Source: a virus. Taken from it: a DNA stretch of 38,027 nt. The notes under the pieces were generated by a model that had not been told where the DNA came from, ran no database searches, and saw nothing but the letters and a program-made list of their open reading frames with translations. Shown here in pieces: positions 4,718 through 35,847 of this stretch (position 1 is its first letter; the number at the start of each line of letters is the position of its first letter). The translations under genes and the position numbers were made by a program. The DNA lies in IMG/VR virus record IMGVR_UViG_3300045241_000075, positions 1 to 38,027 of that record. One strand, written 5' to 3'.

Positions 4718-4923
4718 AGCGCGTCCTCGTACCGGCGTTGATACGCCACGTCACAAGCCCAGCATCGAGTCTCCGCGAGGGGTCGGTATTGGCTGAGTCG
4801 GCACCCACAGGATTCGCATCGAGCGGTGGGGCGTGGCGTCGGGGGTGTCCGCTTGGTGAATGCGTCGCCAGCGGCGATGCGTACGGCTGTCCAGTTGCCG
4901 CTCACGCCGCTGCCTCGTGGCAC
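4714..4923 (-). CDS. Small zinc-ribbon protein
   Basis: 69 residues from GTG 4923; a second GTG at 4905 is possible. CESCGCRLSQYR then ETRCWACDVAYQRR provides two CxxC pairs. First minus-strand gene after the integrase interval. Confidence 0.65.
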   Translation of the reverse strand: MPRGSGVSGNWTAVRIAAGDAFTKRTPPTPRPTARCESCGCRLSQYRPLAETRCWACDVAYQRRYEDAL

Positions 4924-4951
4924 GAATCTGGTACGCGACTAGTTCCGCCAG

Positions 4952-5017
4952 CCTCCAACCACCGGCACCAGCCGCGCGTTAGAAGCGCATGGCTAGGGAC
5001 ACCCCGGTGGTTGGAGG
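4952..5017. repeat. Long inverted repeat upstream of integrase cassette
   Basis: Perfect 14-bp arms, CCTCCAACCACCGG at 4952-4965 and its complement at 5004-5017. The 38-base interior can pair further (AGCC with GGCT, CGC with GCG). No T-run follows. Candidates are a transcription barrier, a structured RNA or part of attP. The region 4924-5153 has no other gene. Confidence 0.6.
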
Positions 5018-5031
5018 TGTGACGCTGTGAT

Positions 5032-5050
5032 ACCCCGCAAAGAGCGGGGT
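5032..5050. terminator. Short GC hairpin
   Basis: ACCCCGC, loop AAAGA, GCGGGGT. Seven-bp stem without a U-run. It may end minus-strand transcription that has crossed the integrase or insulate the integrase promoter from leftward genes. Confidence 0.35.
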
Positions 5051-5075
5051 TGGCGAGGGTGATCATCGACGCCCC

Positions 5076-5112
5076 TGGCTGAGACAGCCATTTGTCGCGA
5101 ATCTGGTACAGT
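5076..5112 (+). promoter_or_regulatory. Candidate integrase promoter and operator
   Basis: TGGTACAGT at 5104-5112 is an extended -10. The -35 area (about 5084-5089) overlaps a 15-bp palindrome, TGGCTG AGA CAGCCA, at 5076-5090, which may be an operator. A start site near 5119-5121 would make the ATG at 5121 nearly leaderless. Confidence 0.45.
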
Positions 5113-5118
5113 GGGGGT

Positions 5119-5164
5119 ACATGACCGATCCGAGTGGAAGGAACTAGAGGCACATGACCGATCC
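5119..5164 (+). repeat. Duplicated gene-start sequence before integrase operon
   Basis: ACATGACCGATCC occurs at 5119-5131 and 5152-5164. The first copy opens an eight-codon frame (MTDPSGRN, stop); the second starts the 69-residue gene. It could act as a leader peptide that feeds reinitiation. Confidence 0.5.
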
Positions 5165-5363
5165 CGAACACCCGAAAAGCGAGCGACTCAAGATCCACGA
5201 GTACGTCGAGGCCCACGACAATGACCCCCTCGCCTACACCATCGCCATATTCAACGCGATCGGCCACCTCGAAATGCGGATCGAAGAGCTGGAACACCTC
5301 GTCCCCGGCGGCAAAGTCGGAGGCCAGCCACCCGTCAATGCTCCCGGCAGCCCGCTCGACTAG
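5154..5363 (+). CDS. Small protein coupled to integrase
   Basis: 69 residues, MTDPEHPKSERLKIHEYVEA at the start, then an amphipathic helix, AIFNAIGHLEMRIEELEHL, and a Gly/Pro tail. Its TAG lies directly before the GTG of the integrase, so the two are co-translated. It is not an HTH protein; the helix could mediate dimerisation. Role unknown, possibly an integrase accessory factor. Confidence 0.65.
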   Translation: MTDPEHPKSERLKIHEYVEAHDNDPLAYTIAIFNAIGHLEMRIEELEHLVPGGKVGGQPPVNAPGSPLD

Positions 5364-6383
5364 GTGAGTCTCTCTCAGACCGCGAGTGGGAAGTGGCGAG
5401 CCAGGTGGCGAACCAGCGACGGCCACCACCCCAGCAAGACGTTCACGCTGAAGCGGGATGCGGAGCGGCACCTCCACGCGATGGCGATCGCCGCCGAGAA
5501 TGCGACAGACCGCCGCCCCGGACGCGACGAGACGATCCGCACCCTCATCAAGCAGTGGTGGCCGTCGGTCGAACGCAGCGTCAAACCCCGCACGGCTGAG
5601 CGGTACGCGGAGCACCTCAAGACGATCCAACGCCACCCCATCGCGAAGGAACCACTGAACCGCGTCGACTACGCGGCGGCGCAGAGCTTCGTGGACGACC
5701 TCGCCACCCAGTACGCGCCGAACACCGTCAGCGGCGTCTACAGCGTCCTCAGCCTCATCCTCGCCGACGCAGCGAAACGCGGGAAGGTCGCCGCGATCCC
5801 CAGGCCAGTCATGCCCCGCCGGCGACGACCCCAACTCGTCATCCCCACCAGGGACGAAGTCGAAGCGCTCGCCGCCGCCGTCGACGCTCGGATGTGCGCC
5901 GCGGTCATCCTCGCCGGGTACTGCGGCCTCCGCATGGGAGAACTCCTCGCGTTGACCAGCGCGGATGTGAACCTCGCTGATGGGTGGGTCTTCGTCCACG
6001 CCAGCCGGAACCAATCCACCGGCGCGATTGAGGGGACGAAGACGGACGCCGCTCGCCGCGTCCACCTGCCAGGGCGGGCGCGTACCGTCCTCGGAGAGCA
6101 TCTCGACGAGTACCCGGGGAGTCAGTTGTTCCCGGTCACGGCGTCCGTCTTCGACAAGTCGTGGCGCCTCGCCCGCGTGGTGACTGGGCTGGAGGGTGTC
6201 CGTTTCCACGACTTGCGTCATGCTGCCGCGTCGATGATGATCGCGGCGGGTTGGAACGTGAAGCTCGTCTCGCAGCAACTCGGCCACGCGAACGCGACAC
6301 AGACCCTCGGAACCTACACCCACTTGTGGCCCGACTCGTTCGGCGTGGCGATCCAGCAGCTCGACGAGTACCTCGACGAGTGA
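5364..6383 (+). CDS. int: Tyrosine-type site-specific integrase
   Basis: 339 residues from GTG 5364. The N-terminal arm-binding part (GKWRARWRTSDG) is followed by a SAM-like core-binding domain (about 55-150) and a catalytic domain with Arg190 in GLRMGE, Lys226 region, His282 and Arg285 in HDLRH, His308 in LGHAN and the nucleophile Tyr318 in GTYTH. All catalytic positions are present, so recombination between attP and attB should be possible. It is transcribed against the surrounding early operon. No tRNA-like attP core could be identified by eye. Confidence 0.93.
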   Translation: MSLSQTASGKWRARWRTSDGHHPSKTFTLKRDAERHLHAMAIAAENATDRRPGRDETIRTLIKQWWPSVERSVKPRTAERYAEHLKTIQRHPIAKEPLNRVDYAAAQSFVDDLATQYAPNTVSGVYSVLSLILADAAKRGKVAAIPRPVMPRRRRPQLVIPTRDEVEALAAAVDARMCAAVILAGYCGLRMGELLALTSADVNLADGWVFVHASRNQSTGAIEGTKTDAARRVHLPGRARTVLGEHLDEYPGSQLFPVTASVFDKSWRLARVVTGLEGVRFHDLRHAAASMMIAAGWNVKLVSQQLGHANATQTLGTYTHLWPDSFGVAIQQLDEYLDE

Positions 6384-6388
6384 TCCCG

Positions 6389-6416
6389 GGCGGTAGAAGA
6401 GCCGTTCTACCGCCCG
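6389..6416 (+). terminator. Hairpin after integrase
   Basis: GGGCGGTAGAA, short loop, TTCTACCGCCC directly after the integrase stop. The 11-bp perfect stem fits a terminator for the integrase transcript, although no long T-run follows. Confidence 0.6.
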
Positions 6417-6501
6417 TCGGCTCACGTCCAAGCCGTCCTTACGGATAGGCTCACGCCCAGCTTTTACCCTGGGATCGCCGCTAATCCGTGAGCCGACGGG
6501 C
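6412..6501. repeat. 15-bp inverted repeat downstream of integrase
   Basis: GCCCGTCGGCTCACG at 6412-6426 and its exact complement at 6487-6501, with a further GGCTCACG in between (about 6448-6455). It may be integrase arm sites or an attP element; it overlaps the hairpin at 6389-6416. Confidence 0.5.
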
Positions 6502-6636
6502 AGGGGGCACCCGTAGAGCGGCCCGTTTCCTTCCACGGGTGGGCCAAGCCCGCATCCGGGCGCAGATGGCGGCAGGTGCACGCGTCCATCGGCGCACAGG
6601 AAGCTTGGGCGGTCGGATAGATGTTCGACAGGGGTT

Positions 6637-6846
6637 TCAGGCATCGCGGCCTCTGAGCAGCGCCAGCACCTTCTCGACCATCGCGTCCTCGCCGAGTTCG
6701 ATGTCAGTCCCGACATCTTCTGGGCGCAGCGCCTCGATTTCGGTGGCGACCACCGCGAGCACCGCATCCGCCGCGTCCGTCGCACTCTCGTCCCAGATCG
6801 TGATGGCACGGGCCACCTCGACGCGCAGGTCTACGGAATCAGGCAT
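6637..6846 (-). CDS. Hypothetical acidic helical protein
   Basis: 69 residues, MPDSVDLRVEVARAITIWDE at the start and VEKVLALLRGRDA at the end. All helix, strongly acidic. ATG overlaps the previous gene end. Not recognised. Together with 6839-7033 and 7193-7474 it shares an 'operate on subunit interface' look, but no family can be named. Confidence 0.6.
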   Translation of the reverse strand: MPDSVDLRVEVARAITIWDESATDAADAVLAVVATEIEALRPEDVGTDIELGEDAMVEKVLALLRGRDA

Positions 6847-8470: not shown

Positions 8471-8688
8471 CAGCAGTTCATGAGGTAGTGGAGGAATCCG
8501 GGCTGCTGTTCGCATGGACACGGGTTGGGTGGGCCACCAGCAAATGTCGGGTCATCCGAGGGTTTCCACGCTGAACTGATCCCGGTCGGGTAGTTGGCGT
8601 TGAGCCAGCGGGCGGCATTTAGCGGCCCTTCGTCAGAGCAGACGCTTGCGTAGCAGATCCCCGGTGATGTGATGAGCGAGGTCGTCAT
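8470..8688 (-). CDS. Conserved small actinophage protein
   Basis: 72 residues. The block WLNANYPTGISSAWKPSDDP then NPCPCEQQPGFLHYLMNC belongs to a recurrent actinobacteriophage mini-protein with a terminal HYLxxC and a CxC pair. Function unknown. Follows the Rad52-like gene in an ATGA overlap. Confidence 0.7.
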   Translation of the reverse strand: MTTSLITSPGICYASVCSDEGPLNAARWLNANYPTGISSAWKPSDDPTFAGGPPNPCPCEQQPGFLHYLMNC

Positions 8689-9416
8689 GACCCAGCCTGT
8701 TCGACGAGTGCGGGGTCGTCGAGGGCTTCCGGAGCCTCGTCGAGCGTCAACGGCGACGGCGGCAACTCTGGCTCGCCATTCGGTGTCTGCTTCGCCTCGG
8801 TGATCGCCCAATCCAGATCCTCGATCAGGAGACTCGCCTCGTCGAGAGTCTTCACATTCCGTTTCAGCAACGGGTGACCAGGCATGAGCGTCCCGAGTTG
8901 GGTACGACGCGCGGTGATCGCCGTCTTCTGCGGCAGCGTCACCTTCGCGATTCCGTCCGAACCAGCCGACGACGCGGCGGGGTCAACGTCAGGGTTAGCC
9001 GCTTCCTGCGCCGCCGGCTGATCCGGTTCCAGACGCTCAATCACCTCCTCTCGGCTCGCCTGCAAATCCTCTTTCGCCCACAAATCTAGGGCGACACCGA
9101 ACCGCATCGCACACCGCCGGATCGCGTCGCTCGAGCACTCCTTCATGTTCGGCCCGTCACCCCACTCATGGCGGGTGACACCGCAGACGGTCAGCGCGTA
9201 CAAGACTTCTTCGCCGCTCCGACCACCAGGACGAACGATCGGGACGTGGTTCGCGTTCATGACCGGCCCGAACTCGTACTCCGGGTCGACCTGGAGCAGC
9301 CGATCGGTGACCACGGCGTGCCCGGCGAAATCGAGCATCTTTCCACCCTTCGGAAGGTGGCCGATCTGCTCGGGTGGAAACGGCTTGCGGAGGGCTTTAG
9401 CTTGTGACGCGTCCAT
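8685..9416 (-). CDS. Rad52-like single-strand annealing protein
   Basis: 243 residues from ATG 9416, with GAGGAGGA just upstream. The N-terminal 130 residues (LRKPFPPEQIGHLPKGGKML, AVVTDRLLQVDP, then DAIRRCAMRFGVALDLW) match the Rad52/DdrA-type annealing proteins common in actinophages. The C-terminal 110 residues are Pro/Glu-rich and variable, as is usual. Likely role: annealing single strands during replication or recombination, perhaps with host exonuclease. It has no phage exonuclease partner nearby. Confidence 0.75.
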   Translation of the reverse strand: MDASQAKALRKPFPPEQIGHLPKGGKMLDFAGHAVVTDRLLQVDPEYEFGPVMNANHVPIVRPGGRSGEEVLYALTVCGVTRHEWGDGPNMKECSSDAIRRCAMRFGVALDLWAKEDLQASREEVIERLEPDQPAAQEAANPDVDPAASSAGSDGIAKVTLPQKTAITARRTQLGTLMPGHPLLKRNVKTLDEASLLIEDLDWAITEAKQTPNGEPELPPSPLTLDEAPEALDDPALVEQAGS

Positions 9417-9642
9417 GATCCTCCTCGAGGATGTCCCGCGCGTGGAACAGCAGCATGCTTGCCAAGAGGTGTGAACATCCACGACGCGCGGGGCAGCTGC
9501 ACTCCATCCCATCCGGTGTCGCGGTCACCTCGTACGTCCCGGTGAATCCTCGGACGAGCGCCGAGTCGAAGCCGGTCAAGTCGACGCGGTCTTCGTCGAT
9601 GAGTCGAACCGCCTTCGACACGACGCTCTCCGAGATCATCAT
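9397..9642 (-). CDS. SWIM zinc-finger mini-protein
   Basis: 81 residues (80 from the second ATG). CSCPARRGCSHLLA is a SWIM signature, CxC-x5-CxH, preceded by a strand-rich part (SALVRGFTGTYEVTATPDG). Small SWIM proteins usually sit beside recombination genes in actinophages, as here, directly before the Rad52-like gene. Probably binds DNA or the annealing protein. Confidence 0.75.
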   Translation of the reverse strand: MMISESVVSKAVRLIDEDRVDLTGFDSALVRGFTGTYEVTATPDGMECSCPARRGCSHLLASMLLFHARDILEEDHGRVTS

Positions 9643-10061
9643 CAGTACGGAGCCAGCGTCTCGTTGATGACGTGGGCTTCTAGCTGGGCCGAGTTGTTCC
9701 AGCCGCTGGTGTAGGTGACGCGGAGCACTGAGCGCCACCATCCGTTCTTCGTGGTGTGGACTCGGACGTTCAGTCCACATGTCGCGCCGGGGGCGAGCTT
9801 CAGGCCGGCGACGCAGGTCGTGCCGCTGCCGAGGGTGAACTTATTGCCACCGCTGCCAGCGATCGCGACTACACCGATCTTCTGGGTGACGCCGCTGCCA
9901 TTGTGGAGCGTCGCCATCTTCTTCGGATGCGTGCCACTGAACACCGTGCCAAACCGGACATGGCTCGGGGAGATCGAGTTCTGCGCGCTCGTGGCGAACG
10001 CTGACGCTGTGATCGCGAGCGTCCCACCCACGATCACTAGGATCGAGACTAGCTTCTTCAT
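9642..10061 (-). CDS. Secreted ASH/immunoglobulin-like domain protein
   Basis: 139 residues. The signal peptide MKKLVSILVIVGGTLAITAS is followed by a single beta-sandwich domain with ISPSHVRFGTVFSGTH, TTCVAGLKLAPGATCGLNVR and VLRVTYTSG, the order seen in ASPM-SPD-2-hydin (ASH) type repeats of actinobacterial surface proteins. Two Cys of that domain may form a disulphide. Third gene of the early operon, so expressed at once after induction or infection. It may alter the cell surface, for example in exclusion; this is inference. Confidence 0.7.
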   Translation of the reverse strand: MKKLVSILVIVGGTLAITASAFATSAQNSISPSHVRFGTVFSGTHPKKMATLHNGSGVTQKIGVVAIAGSGGNKFTLGSGTTCVAGLKLAPGATCGLNVRVHTTKNGWWRSVLRVTYTSGWNNSAQLEAHVINETLAPY

Positions 10062-10089: not shown

Positions 10090-10254
10090 CTACATTCGTC
10101 CTGTGCGGCGGAGTTGTTCGAGCCAATCCTCTTGCTCGGACTGGCGAAGCTTTATGGCGCGGTCTCGCATGTGGAGGGCGATCCAGGCGTAGCCGACACC
10201 GACGAGGAGGCTGATCGTGATCCACGCGCCGATGCCGATCCCCCACGTGGTCAT
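10090..10254 (-). CDS. Small membrane protein after Cro-like gene
   Basis: 54 residues. One membrane segment, WGIGIGAWITISLLVGVGYA, then a basic and amphipathic tail, ALHMRDRAIKLRQSEQEDWL. ATGA overlap with the HTH gene. It sits between a regulator and an exported protein; function unknown. Confidence 0.65.
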   Translation of the reverse strand: MTTWGIGIGAWITISLLVGVGYAWIALHMRDRAIKLRQSEQEDWLEQLRRTGRM

Positions 10255-10484
10255 GCCGTCACCTCGTCGTTCGTCTCGGCGAACCAGTTCACGGTGCGGC
10301 CGTAGAGGTTCGCGGCGCGGACGAGTGTGCGGTAGCTGGGCTCGGTCTTCCCGGCTTCGTATCGCTCGAGGGTGTCGACGCTGATTCCGAACTCGTCGGC
10401 GGCTCGCGGCTTTCCGATTTCTCGGTCTTCACGCGCTTGTCGCAGCCGTTTACCGATGCTCTGTGCTGTAGGAGTGTGTGGCAT
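10251..10484 (-). CDS. HTH (XRE) regulator, Cro-like candidate
   Basis: 77 residues. AQSIGKRLRQAREDREIG, then AADEFGISVDTLERYEAGKT and VRAANLYGRTVNWFAE, form a complete XRE helix-turn-helix. It is the first gene of the leftward early operon and starts about 5 bases after the predicted transcription start. It resembles the divergent regulator at 10631 in layout (LERYxxGxTxPS, LxGRxxxWFA). By position it would be the Cro-type lytic regulator. Confidence 0.8.
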   Translation of the reverse strand: MPHTPTAQSIGKRLRQAREDREIGKPRAADEFGISVDTLERYEAGKTEPSYRTLVRAANLYGRTVNWFAETNDEVTA

Positions 10485-10524
10485 TTCTGCTCCTCACCCT
10501 AGCACCCCGCATTCTGGTTTGCAA
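10482..10524 (-). promoter_or_regulatory. Early leftward promoter
   Basis: Minus strand: TTGCAA (10524-10519), 17-bp spacer, TAGGGT (10501-10496), then GAGGAGCA and ATG at 10484. The transcript would begin within about 5-8 bases of the ATG, so it is nearly leaderless. Confidence 0.65.
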
Positions 10525-10550
10525 GAGTGGCGGAAAGGAAACCCCGCAGT

Positions 10551-10593
10551 TTGCGCCACGCCCACTCCTCCGCTACCCTGAGGAGCAAAGATG
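10551..10593 (+). promoter_or_regulatory. Rightward repressor promoter
   Basis: Plus strand: TTGCGC (10551-10556), 17-bp spacer, TACCCT (10574-10579), then GAGGAGCA. The block GCTA-CCC-TGAGGAGCA mirrors GCTA-GGG-TGAGGAGCA of the opposing promoter, which suggests a shared operator over the -10 and start region of each. Confidence 0.65.
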
Positions 10594-10630
10594 CTCCAAG
10601 TCATGGCCGCCCCAGAAAGAGAGGCCACTC

Positions 10631-11008
10631 GTGACGCCCACCGCGAAGTACATTGGAGCACGGATCAAGGAAGCCATCGACACCGCTGACTTCCCCGAAG
10701 GCTCCAAGCATCTAGAGCTCGTCGCCGGCACTCTCGGCACGTCCAAAGAGACGCTCGAGCGCTACATCAACGGCGTTACCGACCCTTCCGCATTGTTCAT
10801 CTGGCAGCTGGCCGAGCTGACCGGACGCTCGTTCGGCTGGTTCGCGGGTGACCTAGTCGATGTCCCCGAAGAACTCGATCGTGCGATCTTGACGCGGCTG
10901 CTCCGGGAGTTGGAGCTTCGAGACGCGACCGTCGCGAAGCTCCGCGGCAAGCTCGAAAAGGCGGATCCGCTGCTCGTATCGAGCAGCGATGGCCCGGGCA
11001 AGCGCTAG
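10631..11008 (+). CDS. HTH immunity repressor candidate
   Basis: 125 residues from GTG 10631 (GAGAGG upstream). AKYIGARIKEAIDTADFPEG, HLELVAGTLGTSKETLERYI and QLAELTGRSFGWFAGD make up an XRE-type DNA-binding domain. A coiled-coil-like tail (LTRLLRELELRDATVAKLRG) may mediate dimerisation. It has no peptidase domain, so it would not be controlled by RecA cleavage. Divergent from the early operon, it is the likely lysogenic repressor. Confidence 0.75.
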   Translation: MTPTAKYIGARIKEAIDTADFPEGSKHLELVAGTLGTSKETLERYINGVTDPSALFIWQLAELTGRSFGWFAGDLVDVPEELDRAILTRLLRELELRDATVAKLRGKLEKADPLLVSSSDGPGKR

Positions 11009-11100: not shown

Positions 11101-11129
11101 TTGCACGAATATCCCCCATCTGCTAGTCT
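11101..11129 (+). promoter_or_regulatory. Promoter for immunity genes
   Basis: TTGCAC (11101-11106), exactly 17 bp, TAGTCT (11124-11129). Same TTGC-17-TAnnnT form as the two switch promoters. It lies about 50 bases before the immunity gene, in an otherwise empty 170-bp gap. Confidence 0.65.
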
Positions 11130-11178
11130 GCACCGCAGAGATGCACCTACCGGGTGCGCCACAAACAGAAAGAACACC

Positions 11179-11373
11179 ATGAACGCTTCAACCATCTTCA
11201 GCATCCTGACCCTCGCCGGCATCTACTTCATCCCGACGATCATCGCGGCCGTGCGGAGTCACCAGGGCGCGAGCGTCTTCGTGATGAACCTGTTCCTCGG
11301 GTGGACGCTCATCGGGTGGGTCGTCGCTTTGACGATGAGCGTCCGCGACAAGCCGCGGCACGCTCGCGCATGA
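11179..11373 (+). CDS. Superinfection immunity membrane protein
   Basis: 64 residues from ATG 11179. Two membrane segments. IYFIPTIIAAVRSHQ and LFLGWTLIGWVVALT match the superinfection-immunity family (Imm-like of T4), which blocks DNA entry of related phages at the membrane. Driven by its own promoter next to the repressor, it is probably a lysogenic conversion gene. Confidence 0.85.
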   Translation: MNASTIFSILTLAGIYFIPTIIAAVRSHQGASVFVMNLFLGWTLIGWVVALTMSVRDKPRHARA

Positions 11374-34020: not shown

Positions 34021-34220
34021 ATGACTCCGATTGAGAAGTGGTAGACGAGCCATACGCAGAATGCGAGGACGGCCCAGCGGACGAGTTTGGGTGCTTTGCG
34101 GATGTACCAGGTGAGTGGTTGCCAGCTCGTCTTGCCGCCGCGGTGTTCGTCGTAGAGGCCGACTGCTTCCGCGATGCCGAGGACAGCGAGGACGACCGAG
34201 AAGACGACTAGGCCGATCAT
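34017..34220 (-). CDS. Small two-pass membrane protein
   Basis: 67 residues, ATGA overlap. IGLVVFSVVLAVLGIAEAVG, a cytoplasmic loop with SWQPLTWYIRKAP, then RWAVLAFCVWLVYHFSI. Layout common to small actinophage membrane proteins near terminase. Unknown. Confidence 0.65.
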   Translation of the reverse strand: MIGLVVFSVVLAVLGIAEAVGLYDEHRGGKTSWQPLTWYIRKAPKLVRWAVLAFCVWLVYHFSIGVI

Positions 34221-34792
34221 GCTGCCGGCGCTTTCGCTGCCATCTGGTTGAGCATGAAGAGGTGCGCGGCGTGGGCTTGGCTCTTGAACTCGGCTGCGAG
34301 GACGGCCGAGTCGAAGACGGTAAGCTCGTTGTTTTGCTTCTTTACTCCGCTGCCTTCGCCGCTGAGGCTCCAGTTGGTGGATCCGCCGATGACGAAGCGG
34401 TCGTCTACGCAGACGCCTTTTTCGTGGCTGATCTGGCTACCAAAAGCCGAGGTGCCGATCGCGATGCTGTTGCCTTCGTATTTCTGGTCGAGGGCCAAAA
34501 TGGCTTTCTCGTGGACGCCACCGGATTGGCTCTTGTCGAGGCTGATCTCGACCGAGATGGTGGGGTCGGCGAGGTAGGCGAGGATCATCGTGTTGAGTTC
34601 GTCGTCGTCGTATCCGAACATCATGATCGTGAGGCTCGATTGGCGCGCACCGTTCTTGCCGACGCTGCCGATGACCTGTTTGAGGACGCCGTGGACGTCG
34701 TCGTCCTGCGTGTAGAAGCGGCGGAGGTTCGCGTCATAGTTCGACGGGAACGGGCCGGCGGTGCGGTACTGGTCGAGATCAGCGAGTTCCAT
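34217..34792 (-). CDS. PLD-superfamily nuclease/phospholipase-like protein
   Basis: 191 residues (GAGGAG before ATG). One canonical HKD motif, HEKGVCVDDRFVIGGSTNWS (His123, Lys125, Asp130, Ser138, Asn140), as in Nuc-type enzymes that act as dimers. The stretch NNELTVFDSAVLAAEFKSQA behind it is typical too. No signal peptide, so cytoplasmic; a nuclease or lipid-active role are both open. Confidence 0.8.
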   Translation of the reverse strand: MELADLDQYRTAGPFPSNYDANLRRFYTQDDDVHGVLKQVIGSVGKNGARQSSLTIMMFGYDDDELNTMILAYLADPTISVEISLDKSQSGGVHEKAILALDQKYEGNSIAIGTSAFGSQISHEKGVCVDDRFVIGGSTNWSLSGEGSGVKKQNNELTVFDSAVLAAEFKSQAHAAHLFMLNQMAAKAPAA

Positions 34793-34801
34793 CGCTCCTC
34801 G

Positions 34802-34909
34802 TCATGGTCGCCATCTGTAGACGGGCTTCAGTTGGAGGTTCCCGTGGCGCGTGAGTGGGCGTGGGGATCGGCCGAGCGTGTGCCCGACGATGTGCCAGCG
34901 CCGTTTCAT
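34802..34909 (-). CDS. 35-residue basic peptide
   Basis: ATGA overlap with the DUF1996 stop. MKRRWHIVGHTLGRSPRPLT, then HGNLQLKPVYRWRP. Strongly basic; perhaps a coupling peptide between the exported protein and the PLD gene. Confidence 0.45.
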   Translation of the reverse strand: MKRRWHIVGHTLGRSPRPLTRHGNLQLKPVYRWRP

Positions 34910-35847
34910 GGCCCAGGATTCGCGTTCGTGAGGAAGCCGCAGTCTCGGTGGATGGCGGTGCAGCCAGCGTTCAGGCTGATCATCTTGTTGAGATCCCAGG
35001 CTTGCATGTAGTCGGCGTGGTACGTGTACCACGGGCCGCTGGAGAAGGTCAGGAGGTCGCCACGGTCGAACCGGTGTGGGTCGTTCGCGCCATTCCCGAA
35101 GTGCTCATGCTCCTGCAACTGTGGGAGTTGGTGTGGGTTCGATGCTGGGCAGACGCCGGTTTGCTGGTTGCCGTAGACGACGTTCCATGGTGGCCCCATG
35201 ACGCCGTCCCAGCACCAGGGGAAGAAGACGATCGCGGTGACGCCCTGCGAGCTGACGACGTTCGGGTCGGTGGCGCAGTTATACGGCTGGGCTCGTGTCG
35301 GTGAGCGGTTGCCGGCACTGCCGCCGTTGCCGCAACTGAAGGCGATCGAGTTCGGGATGACATCGGCTGGACTCAAAGCGTGCGAGTTGCCGGCGACCAT
35401 CTCCAAACCCGGTGGGATCGGCTCTGTCGGGATGCCCGGCGTGCCGAAGTAGTACTCGAACTGTTTCACCGGCAGGACAGGCGCGCCAGTATCGCTGCGA
35501 TAGGCGGCTGGTACCCAGTAGCCGGCGGTGTCCTTCGAGAGGACGCAGCTCGTCGGGCCGCCACGAATGCTGTCTGGTGTTGTGTTTTCGGTGATGCCGA
35601 TGGCACCGAAGAAGTCATGGAGATGCGCCGACGGCTTGATCCCAGGCGACACGATCGGGTCGACCTGGTTCTCACCGTTGAACTTGCACGTCACCTCGAA
35701 CTTCCCACCTTTGATGCCAGGGCCGCCAGTCGCCGACGTGCTCGAGTGGCTGCTGATCGCGGTGGCGGCGTAGAGGACGGCTGCAACAGCGATAGCGGTG
35801 CCACACGCTGCGAGTAACGCGGCTATGGGACGGTGGTGCTTGGCCAA
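34906..35847 (-). CDS. Exported DUF1996 protein
   Basis: 313 residues from TTG 35847, the only start that keeps the signal/anchor segment (IAALLAACGTAIAVAAVLYA). DUF1996 landmarks are all present: AHLHDFFG at 74-81, FFPWCWDG at 208-215, CPASNPHQLPQL at 233-244 and WYTYHADYMQAWD at 273-285. The family is known from fungi and soil actinobacteria and has no proven activity; links to the cell envelope or carbohydrate are suspected. No T-rich or canonical ribosome site is present. Its start codon lies in the U-run of an intrinsic terminator. Confidence 0.8.
   Translation of the reverse strand: MAKHHRPIAALLAACGTAIAVAAVLYAATAISSHSSTSATGGPGIKGGKFEVTCKFNGENQVDPIVSPGIKPSAHLHDFFGAIGITENTTPDSIRGGPTSCVLSKDTAGYWVPAAYRSDTGAPVLPVKQFEYYFGTPGIPTEPIPPGLEMVAGNSHALSPADVIPNSIAFSCGNGGSAGNRSPTRAQPYNCATDPNVVSSQGVTAIVFFPWCWDGVMGPPWNVVYGNQQTGVCPASNPHQLPQLQEHEHFGNGANDPHRFDRGDLLTFSSGPWYTYHADYMQAWDLNKMISLNAGCTAIHRDCGFLTNANPGP

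What the first reader, a model, noticed from the sequence alone, without database searches (positions are those of the whole stretch)
10482..10593. Mirror-image lysogeny switch with matched promoters
Divergent promoters TTGCAA-17-TAGGGT and TTGCGC-17-TACCCT each run into GAGGAGCA and a start within a few bases. The blocks GCTAnnnTGAGGAGCA are inverted copies. The two HTH proteins resemble each other (LERYxxGxTxPS, WFA). The switch may have arisen by duplication and inversion, both regulators reading the same operator.
Basis: partly seen in the sequence, partly recalled or inferred. Interest (0 to 1): 0.7.

Follow-up and report, generated by a model that had tools for sequence, protein, structure and literature searches.

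The report
Lambda-like phage switch, three matched promoters

Summary
The letters described are present: TTGCAA-17-TAGGGT (minus) and TTGCGC-17-TACCCT (plus) diverge from a 146-bp gap between two XRE-type helix-turn-helix genes, each followed by GAGGAGCA and an ATG 11 nt after the -10. Three corrections. (1) The right-hand ATG (10591) is out of frame with the regulator: it opens a 32-codon ORF, and the XRE gene starts at GTG 10631 with its own ribosome site. (2) A -10 ending 11 nt before an ATG puts GAGGAG at or upstream of the RNA start, so it can hardly also be a working ribosome site. (3) The pair is not unique: TTGNNN-N17-TANNNT occurs three times in 38 kb, all within 0.6 kb, all with ATG at exactly +11. 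The third (11101) precedes a superinfection-immunity gene, lacks GAGGA, and is as similar to each of the two as they are to each other. The inverted block alone is weak (2% of shuffles, 8% of real windows). The XRE proteins do look related (38%). Best reading: a divergent repressor/Cro-like switch plus imm, driven by three near-leaderless promoters of one class. Shared operator: plausible, unproven. Duplication with inversion: not supported.

The parts
10251..10484 (-). left regulator, XRE/HTH_31, 77 aa, first gene of the early (lytic-side) operon; Cro position
   Evidence: AlphaFold five-helix XRE fold, pLDDT 84
10496..10524 (-). promoter PL: TTGCAA-17-TAGGGT; ATG 11 nt after the -10
   Evidence: sequence; one of three in the genome
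10488..10503 (-). left copy of the inverted block GCTAGGGTGAGGAGCA
10551..10579 (+). promoter PR: TTGCGC-17-TACCCT
   Evidence: sequence
10572..10587 (+). right copy of the inverted block GCTACCCTGAGGAGCA
10591..10689 (+). 32-codon ORF starting at ATG +11 of PR, out of frame with and overlapping the start of the XRE gene; candidate near-leaderless upstream ORF
   Evidence: translation unproven
10631..11008 (+). right regulator, XRE/HTH_3 with low-confidence C-terminal helices, 125 aa, GTG start with AGAGAGG six nt upstream; likely lysogenic repressor
11101..11129 (+). third promoter of the same class, Pimm: TTGCAC-17-TAGTCT; ATG 11141 comes 11 nt after the -10
11141..11182 (+). 13-codon ORF MHLPGAPQTERTP whose stop overlaps the imm start (ATGA)
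11179..11373 (+). imm: superinfection immunity protein, PF14373, 64 aa
   Evidence: 57.2 bits, cut-off 27.9
10090..10254 (-). 54-aa protein with a hydrophobic N-terminal stretch, start overlapping the left regulator's stop
   Evidence: no family match
8685..9512 (-). single-strand annealing protein of the early operon (longest ORF; true start probably inside)
   Evidence: phrog_3290, 1.6e-32
5364..6383 (+). tyrosine integrase (phage is temperate)
   Evidence: (PF00589, 1.3e-22)

Best explanation
This is the immunity region of a temperate tailed phage, probably of an actinobacterium, organised like lambda cI/cro and the cassettes of mycobacteriophages such as BPs. PL (10524-10496, minus) drives the lytic-side early operon headed by a small Cro-like XRE protein. 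PR (10551-10579, plus) drives a 125-aa XRE repressor. A third promoter of the same design, Pimm (11101-11129, plus), drives a superinfection-immunity membrane protein. All three are of sigma-A type (TTGC-N17-GC-TANNNT) and put an ATG exactly 11 nt after the -10, so the mRNAs should start about 3-6 nt before that ATG (near-leaderless). GAGGAG of the mirrored block then lies at or before the RNA start, as promoter DNA rather than as a ribosome site. At PL the ATG is the regulator's own start; at PR and Pimm it opens a short upstream ORF that overlaps or abuts the real gene. Shown: sequence, geometry, gene content, homology. Inferred: that the right protein is the repressor and the left the Cro-like protein, that one or both bind in this gap and shut off the opposing promoter, and that translation is near-leaderless.
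For: TTGNNN-N17-TANNNT occurs only three times on both strands of 38 kb, at these three places, each with ATG at +11; 300 shuffles give 0.037 on average, at most 1. Only 4 of 91 TANNNT in the genome have ATG at +11; these are three of them. The three share TTGC, GC before the -10, G after it, and GCAnAnATGC. Imm family hit, integrase, XRE domains and folds, SSAP and replication initiator on the early strand. In about 6 Mb (both strands counted) of related phage and prophage loci the same promoter pattern peaks at ATG 6-7 nt after the -10, the leaderless signature. Shell et al. 2015 (PMC4633059) report that a -10 hexamer or an SD upstream of the start codon are mutually exclusive in mycobacteria, and describe leaderless small ORFs that stop before or run into the next gene. 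Divergently transcribed pairs of DNA-binding proteins around a control region are described as common in temperate phages (PMC4557955).
Against: The -10s TAGGGT and TACCCT are GC-rich, and PR's -35 matches TTGACA at only 3 of 6 positions; the generic promoter scan found neither. The 11-nt spacing is not the 6-7 nt typical of leaderless starts. No relative carries this switch, so nothing is tested by conservation. Roles of the two XRE proteins rest on gene position only. GAGGAG is well placed as an SD for PL's ATG, so a longer transcript from another promoter remains possible.
Confidence: 0.75

Rival explanations
1. One reading: the switch arose by duplication and inversion of a regulator-plus-promoter unit, and both regulators read the same 16-bp asymmetric operator.
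For: Inverted block 13/16 at equal promoter positions. Proteins 38% identical from TPTA through WFA. The left is the right's best match: 30.3 bits against at most 20.3 bits in 395 actinomycete genomes, and 45.8 bits (BLASTP) against at most 40 bits in the phage and plasmid collections.
Against: Left-right promoter identity equals left-imm and is below right-imm, so inversion adds nothing. GAGGA is absent at Pimm. The block is reached by chance in 2% of shuffles and 8% of real windows. The left protein has closer relatives elsewhere (40.1 bits). The two proteins' starts sit at different distances from their promoters.
Confidence: 0.12
2. GAGGAG is simply a Shine-Dalgarno sequence at both ATGs, and the resemblance of the blocks is convergence on SD plus a TANNNT match; the true promoters lie elsewhere.
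For: GAGGAG is 5 nt from each ATG, a normal SD spacing, and outside the hexamer and ATG positions the left and right promoters match at only 13 of 34 positions, a level reached by 10% of random pairs.
Against: At PR the ATG is not the regulator's start. Pimm has the same geometry without an SD. Only two TA dinucleotides exist in the gap and both make outward TANNNT; the threefold +11 geometry is far above chance.
Confidence: 0.12
3. Same switch, but the regulators use other operators in the gap (compatible with the best explanation, rival to the mirrored block as operator): the direct repeat ACCCCGCA (10504-10516 in the PL spacer, 10541-10553 overlapping PR's -35) or the dyad GTGGCGGAAA/TTTGCGCCAC (10527-10559), much as BPs uses an operator between -35 and -10.
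For: ACCCCGCA is over-represented (7 in the window, 1.8 expected) with two copies in the gap at positions suited to repress PL and touch PR. BPs OR lies between -10 and -35 of its PR (PMC4557955).
Against: The direct repeat (11/13) is reached in 62 of 400 shuffles and the dyad score in 19 of 100. Several other ACCCCGCA copies lie in coding sequence.
Confidence: 0.3

Closest known systems
Lambda-type cI/cro divergent immunity switch
   Same: Two divergent XRE-fold genes around a short control region with outward promoters; the lytic-side protein is small and heads the early operon.
   Different: The right protein (125 aa) is too short for a lambda-type C-terminal peptidase/oligomerisation domain; operators and tripartite structure not identified; near-leaderless promoters.
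Mycobacteriophage BPs immunity cassette (Prep/PR; PMC4557955)
   Same: Short repressor (103-136 aa) divergent from a Cro-like gene in an actinophage, promoters in the intergenic gap.
   Different: Here the integrase lies about 4 kb away, not next to the repressor, so integration-dependent immunity is not indicated; the BPs 12-bp palindrome was not searched for.
Cluster F mycobacteriophage switch (e.g. Krakatau, NC_051675)
   Same: Repressor on one strand, early operon on the other with SSAP and replication-initiation protein downstream; SSAP about 47% identical over its core.
   Different: No detectable homologue of either regulator in those loci; Krakatau has an antirepressor near the switch.
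Leaderless mycobacterial transcripts with short overlapping ORFs (PMC4633059)
   Same: -10 close to an ATG that opens a small ORF running into or abutting the annotated gene.
   Different: ATG is 11 nt, not 6-7 nt, from the -10; host and translation untested here.

Membership tests
Temperate phage (integrating) | site-specific integrase encoded | tested here: met
   PF00589 at 5847-6326, ORF 5364-6383, no stops; R, HxxR, H and Y motif residues visible
Lambda-type divergent repressor/Cro switch | two divergent HTH genes separated by a control region | tested here: met
Lambda-type divergent repressor/Cro switch | divergent promoters in the control region | tested here: met
   sequence evidence only:
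Lambda-type divergent repressor/Cro switch | shared operators bound by both proteins with opposite effects | not testable with these tools
   no relatives for footprinting; needs binding assays
XRE (HTH_3) transcription regulators | five-helix lambda-repressor-like domain | tested here: met
   left HTH_31 2.1e-11, right HTH_3 6.3e-6, both above cut-off; right model resembles lambda repressor, SinR and P22 c2 domains, with weak Foldseek E-values
Superinfection immunity protein (PF14373) | match over the curated cut-off | tested here: met
   57.2 bits against 27.9
Cluster A stoperator system | many dispersed copies of one asymmetric repressor site | tested here: not met
   the mirrored block has only two exact copies and none with 1-2 mismatches; tested for this block only
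BPs-type integration-dependent immunity | integrase next to the repressor, attP inside the repressor gene | tested here: not met
   integrase 4.2 kb away with early-strand genes between; attP itself not located
Leaderless transcript | start codon at the 5' end of the RNA | tested here: inconclusive
   leader of 3-6 nt predicted from -10 spacing; typical leaderless spacing in related loci is 6-7 nt

The most novel reading that the evidence does not exclude
The three promoters carry a phage-specific regulatory element spanning the -10 and the RNA start (GCTANNNTGNNNNGCANANATG), read by the repressor and its diverged paralogue, and repressor and Imm synthesis are additionally gated by near-leaderless upstream ORFs; for the repressor, the ORF runs through an RNA fold that hides its ribosome site (z -2.7).
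Probability: 0.12. Interest if true: 0.55.

Novelty: new member of a known kind. Interest (0 to 1): 0.3.

Why it matters
It adds a lambda-like switch with unusually uniform promoters from a sparsely sampled phage group, and it shows how reading a -10 and an SD at one start can mislead annotation of actinophage switches. If the upstream ORFs matter, lysogeny in such phages would respond to the host's leaderless-translation capacity, which is testable.

Tried and rejected
Close relatives of either regulator in viral and genome collections: none; the one hit for the right protein, L002, is an AT-rich stretch with 27 matching residues and no HTH gene. TerL gives relatives up to 73% identity (L072-L076, L121), but the stretches held do not contain homologous switch genes. 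SSAP-anchored loci hold no homologue of either regulator. Pattern scan for the mirrored pair in viral contigs: none. The strict three-promoter pattern is absent from 395 Actinomycetes genomes and from all fetched loci apart from the window's own; a first version of that loci scan used a wrong spacing and was redone. Direct-repeat and dyad operator candidates: no better than shuffles. RNA folds at the left and imm leaders: unremarkable. The minus ORF 4902-6809 was first taken as a gene and dropped after the integrase was found on the other strand. First family scans of imm used a wrong frame and were redone. Resolvase-type integrase: none. tRNA genes: none.

Full report
What the window is. The record is a 38-kb IMG/VR virus contig at about 63% GC. 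Its large terminase is 35-39% identical to the best-listed actinophage terminases and up to 73% to metagenomic contigs. Portal, capsid, protease, tail, endolysin and terminase genes run on the minus strand from about 33 to 12 kb. A complete tyrosine integrase is at 5364-6383 on the plus strand. The phage is therefore temperate, and the host is most likely an actinobacterium (inference).

The observation. Both promoters and the inverted blocks exist as written. The left promoter faces a 77-aa XRE gene whose ATG (10484) follows the -10 by 11 nt. On the right, the ATG at +11 (10591) is in a different frame from the XRE gene and opens a 32-codon ORF that ends at 10689. The XRE gene has one possible start after the promoter, GTG 10631, preceded by AGAGAGG. 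So 'a start within a few bases' holds for the left regulator only.

Chance. The inverted 16-mer pair (13 of 16) is matched or beaten in 6 of 300 shuffles of the gap and 21 of 259 real windows of this genome; a second scoring gave about 4% and 10%. On its own it is weak. The promoter geometry is not: TTGNNN-N17-TANNNT occurs three times in the genome (2.5 expected by shuffles), and all three have an ATG at exactly +11 (0.037 expected). The +11 rule was read off the first two, but the third is an independent confirmation.

The third promoter. It lies at 11101-11129, TTGCAC-17-TAGTCT, inside the same region, and precedes the gene 11179-11373, which matches Imm_superinfect (PF14373) at 57.2 bits. 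The ATG at +11 (11141) opens a 13-codon ORF whose stop overlaps the imm start. Aligned over 43 positions, identities are left-right 22, left-imm 22, right-imm 26. Shared by all three beyond the hexamer anchors: the C of TTGC, GC before the -10, G after it, and GCAnAnATGC. GAGGA is shared only by the left and right pair. The mirror relation is therefore between two members of a three-member class, not a private duplication. This pattern was not found in 395 Actinomycetes genomes or in the other fetched loci.

Promoter or ribosome site. With a -10 ending 11 nt before the ATG, RNA should start 3-6 nt before the ATG, inside or after GAGGAGCA; GAGGAG would be DNA-level sequence and mostly not in the message. 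In mycobacteria a -10 and an SD are described as mutually exclusive upstream features of a start codon (PMC4633059). In the related loci fetched here, promoter-like matches show an ATG peak at 6-7 nt after the -10, the leaderless signature; 11 nt is off that peak, so 'near-leaderless' is a prediction, not a demonstration.

The two regulators. They share 38% identity over 71 residues, including an N-terminal TPTA. On one scale, the right protein scores 30.3 bits against the left but at most 20.3 bits against 395 actinomycete genomes; in phage and plasmid records its best scores are 37 and 40 bits against 45.8 for the left (BLASTP). The left protein has many relatives at similar or better scores. 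Common ancestry closer than the XRE average is likely for the pair seen from the right protein, but the right has diverged and a local duplication is not proved. The recognition helices share TLERY and differ next to it (SVDTLERYEAG and SKETLERYING), so partly shared specificity is conceivable (inference from sequence).

How it most likely works. By position, the left protein heads the early operon with the annealing protein and, further on, the replication initiator; the right protein is transcribed away from it towards imm. The right is then the lysogenic repressor and the left a Cro-like protein, as in lambda and in actinophage cassettes such as BPs (PMC4557955) or cluster F. The repressor is expected to block PL, and the Cro-like protein to block PR; Imm would block DNA entry of superinfecting phage (known role of the family, from general knowledge). 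Which DNA they bind is open: the shared -10/+1 element, the ACCCCGCA repeats or the GTGGCG dyad are all candidates, and none is established by statistics. The PR leader folds better than 199 of 200 shuffles and encloses the repressor's ribosome site and GTG, whereas the other two leaders do not stand out; translation of the 10591 ORF could open it. This is a single-sequence prediction.

Limits. All promoter, operator and translation statements are sequence-based.

Noticed in passing
11101-11373: A third promoter of the same class and a superinfection-immunity gene (PF14373), with a 13-codon ORF whose stop overlaps the imm start.
   Followed up: yes
5100-5364: The integrase operon has TGGTACAGT 8 nt before an ATG that opens the 8-codon ORF MTDPSGRN, then a 12-nt repeat (CATGACCGATCC) and a second ORF starting MTDP; a leaderless start is likely here too.
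   Followed up: partly
5032-5050: Perfect inverted repeat ACCCCGC-AAAGA-GCGGGGT upstream of the integrase operon; the same ACCCCGCA occurs twice in the switch gap.
   Followed up: partly
10586-10660: Predicted repressor leader RNA folds at z -2.7, with the uORF start region (UGCUCCAA) pairing to UUGGAGCA downstream of the repressor's GTG.
   Followed up: partly
34906-35847: Protein with a full DUF1996 (PF09362) domain, 112 bits, in a phage contig; next to a PLD-like ORF (34217-34792).
   Followed up: no
9642-10061: 139-aa protein with a signal-peptide-like start and weak PapD-like/ASH similarity on the early strand; no phage relative found.
   Followed up: partly
11275-11327: A 53-nt stretch of imm is 85-87% identical to Gordonia phage superinfection-immunity genes, while the rest of the 3-kb query has no listed DNA match.
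   Followed up: partly
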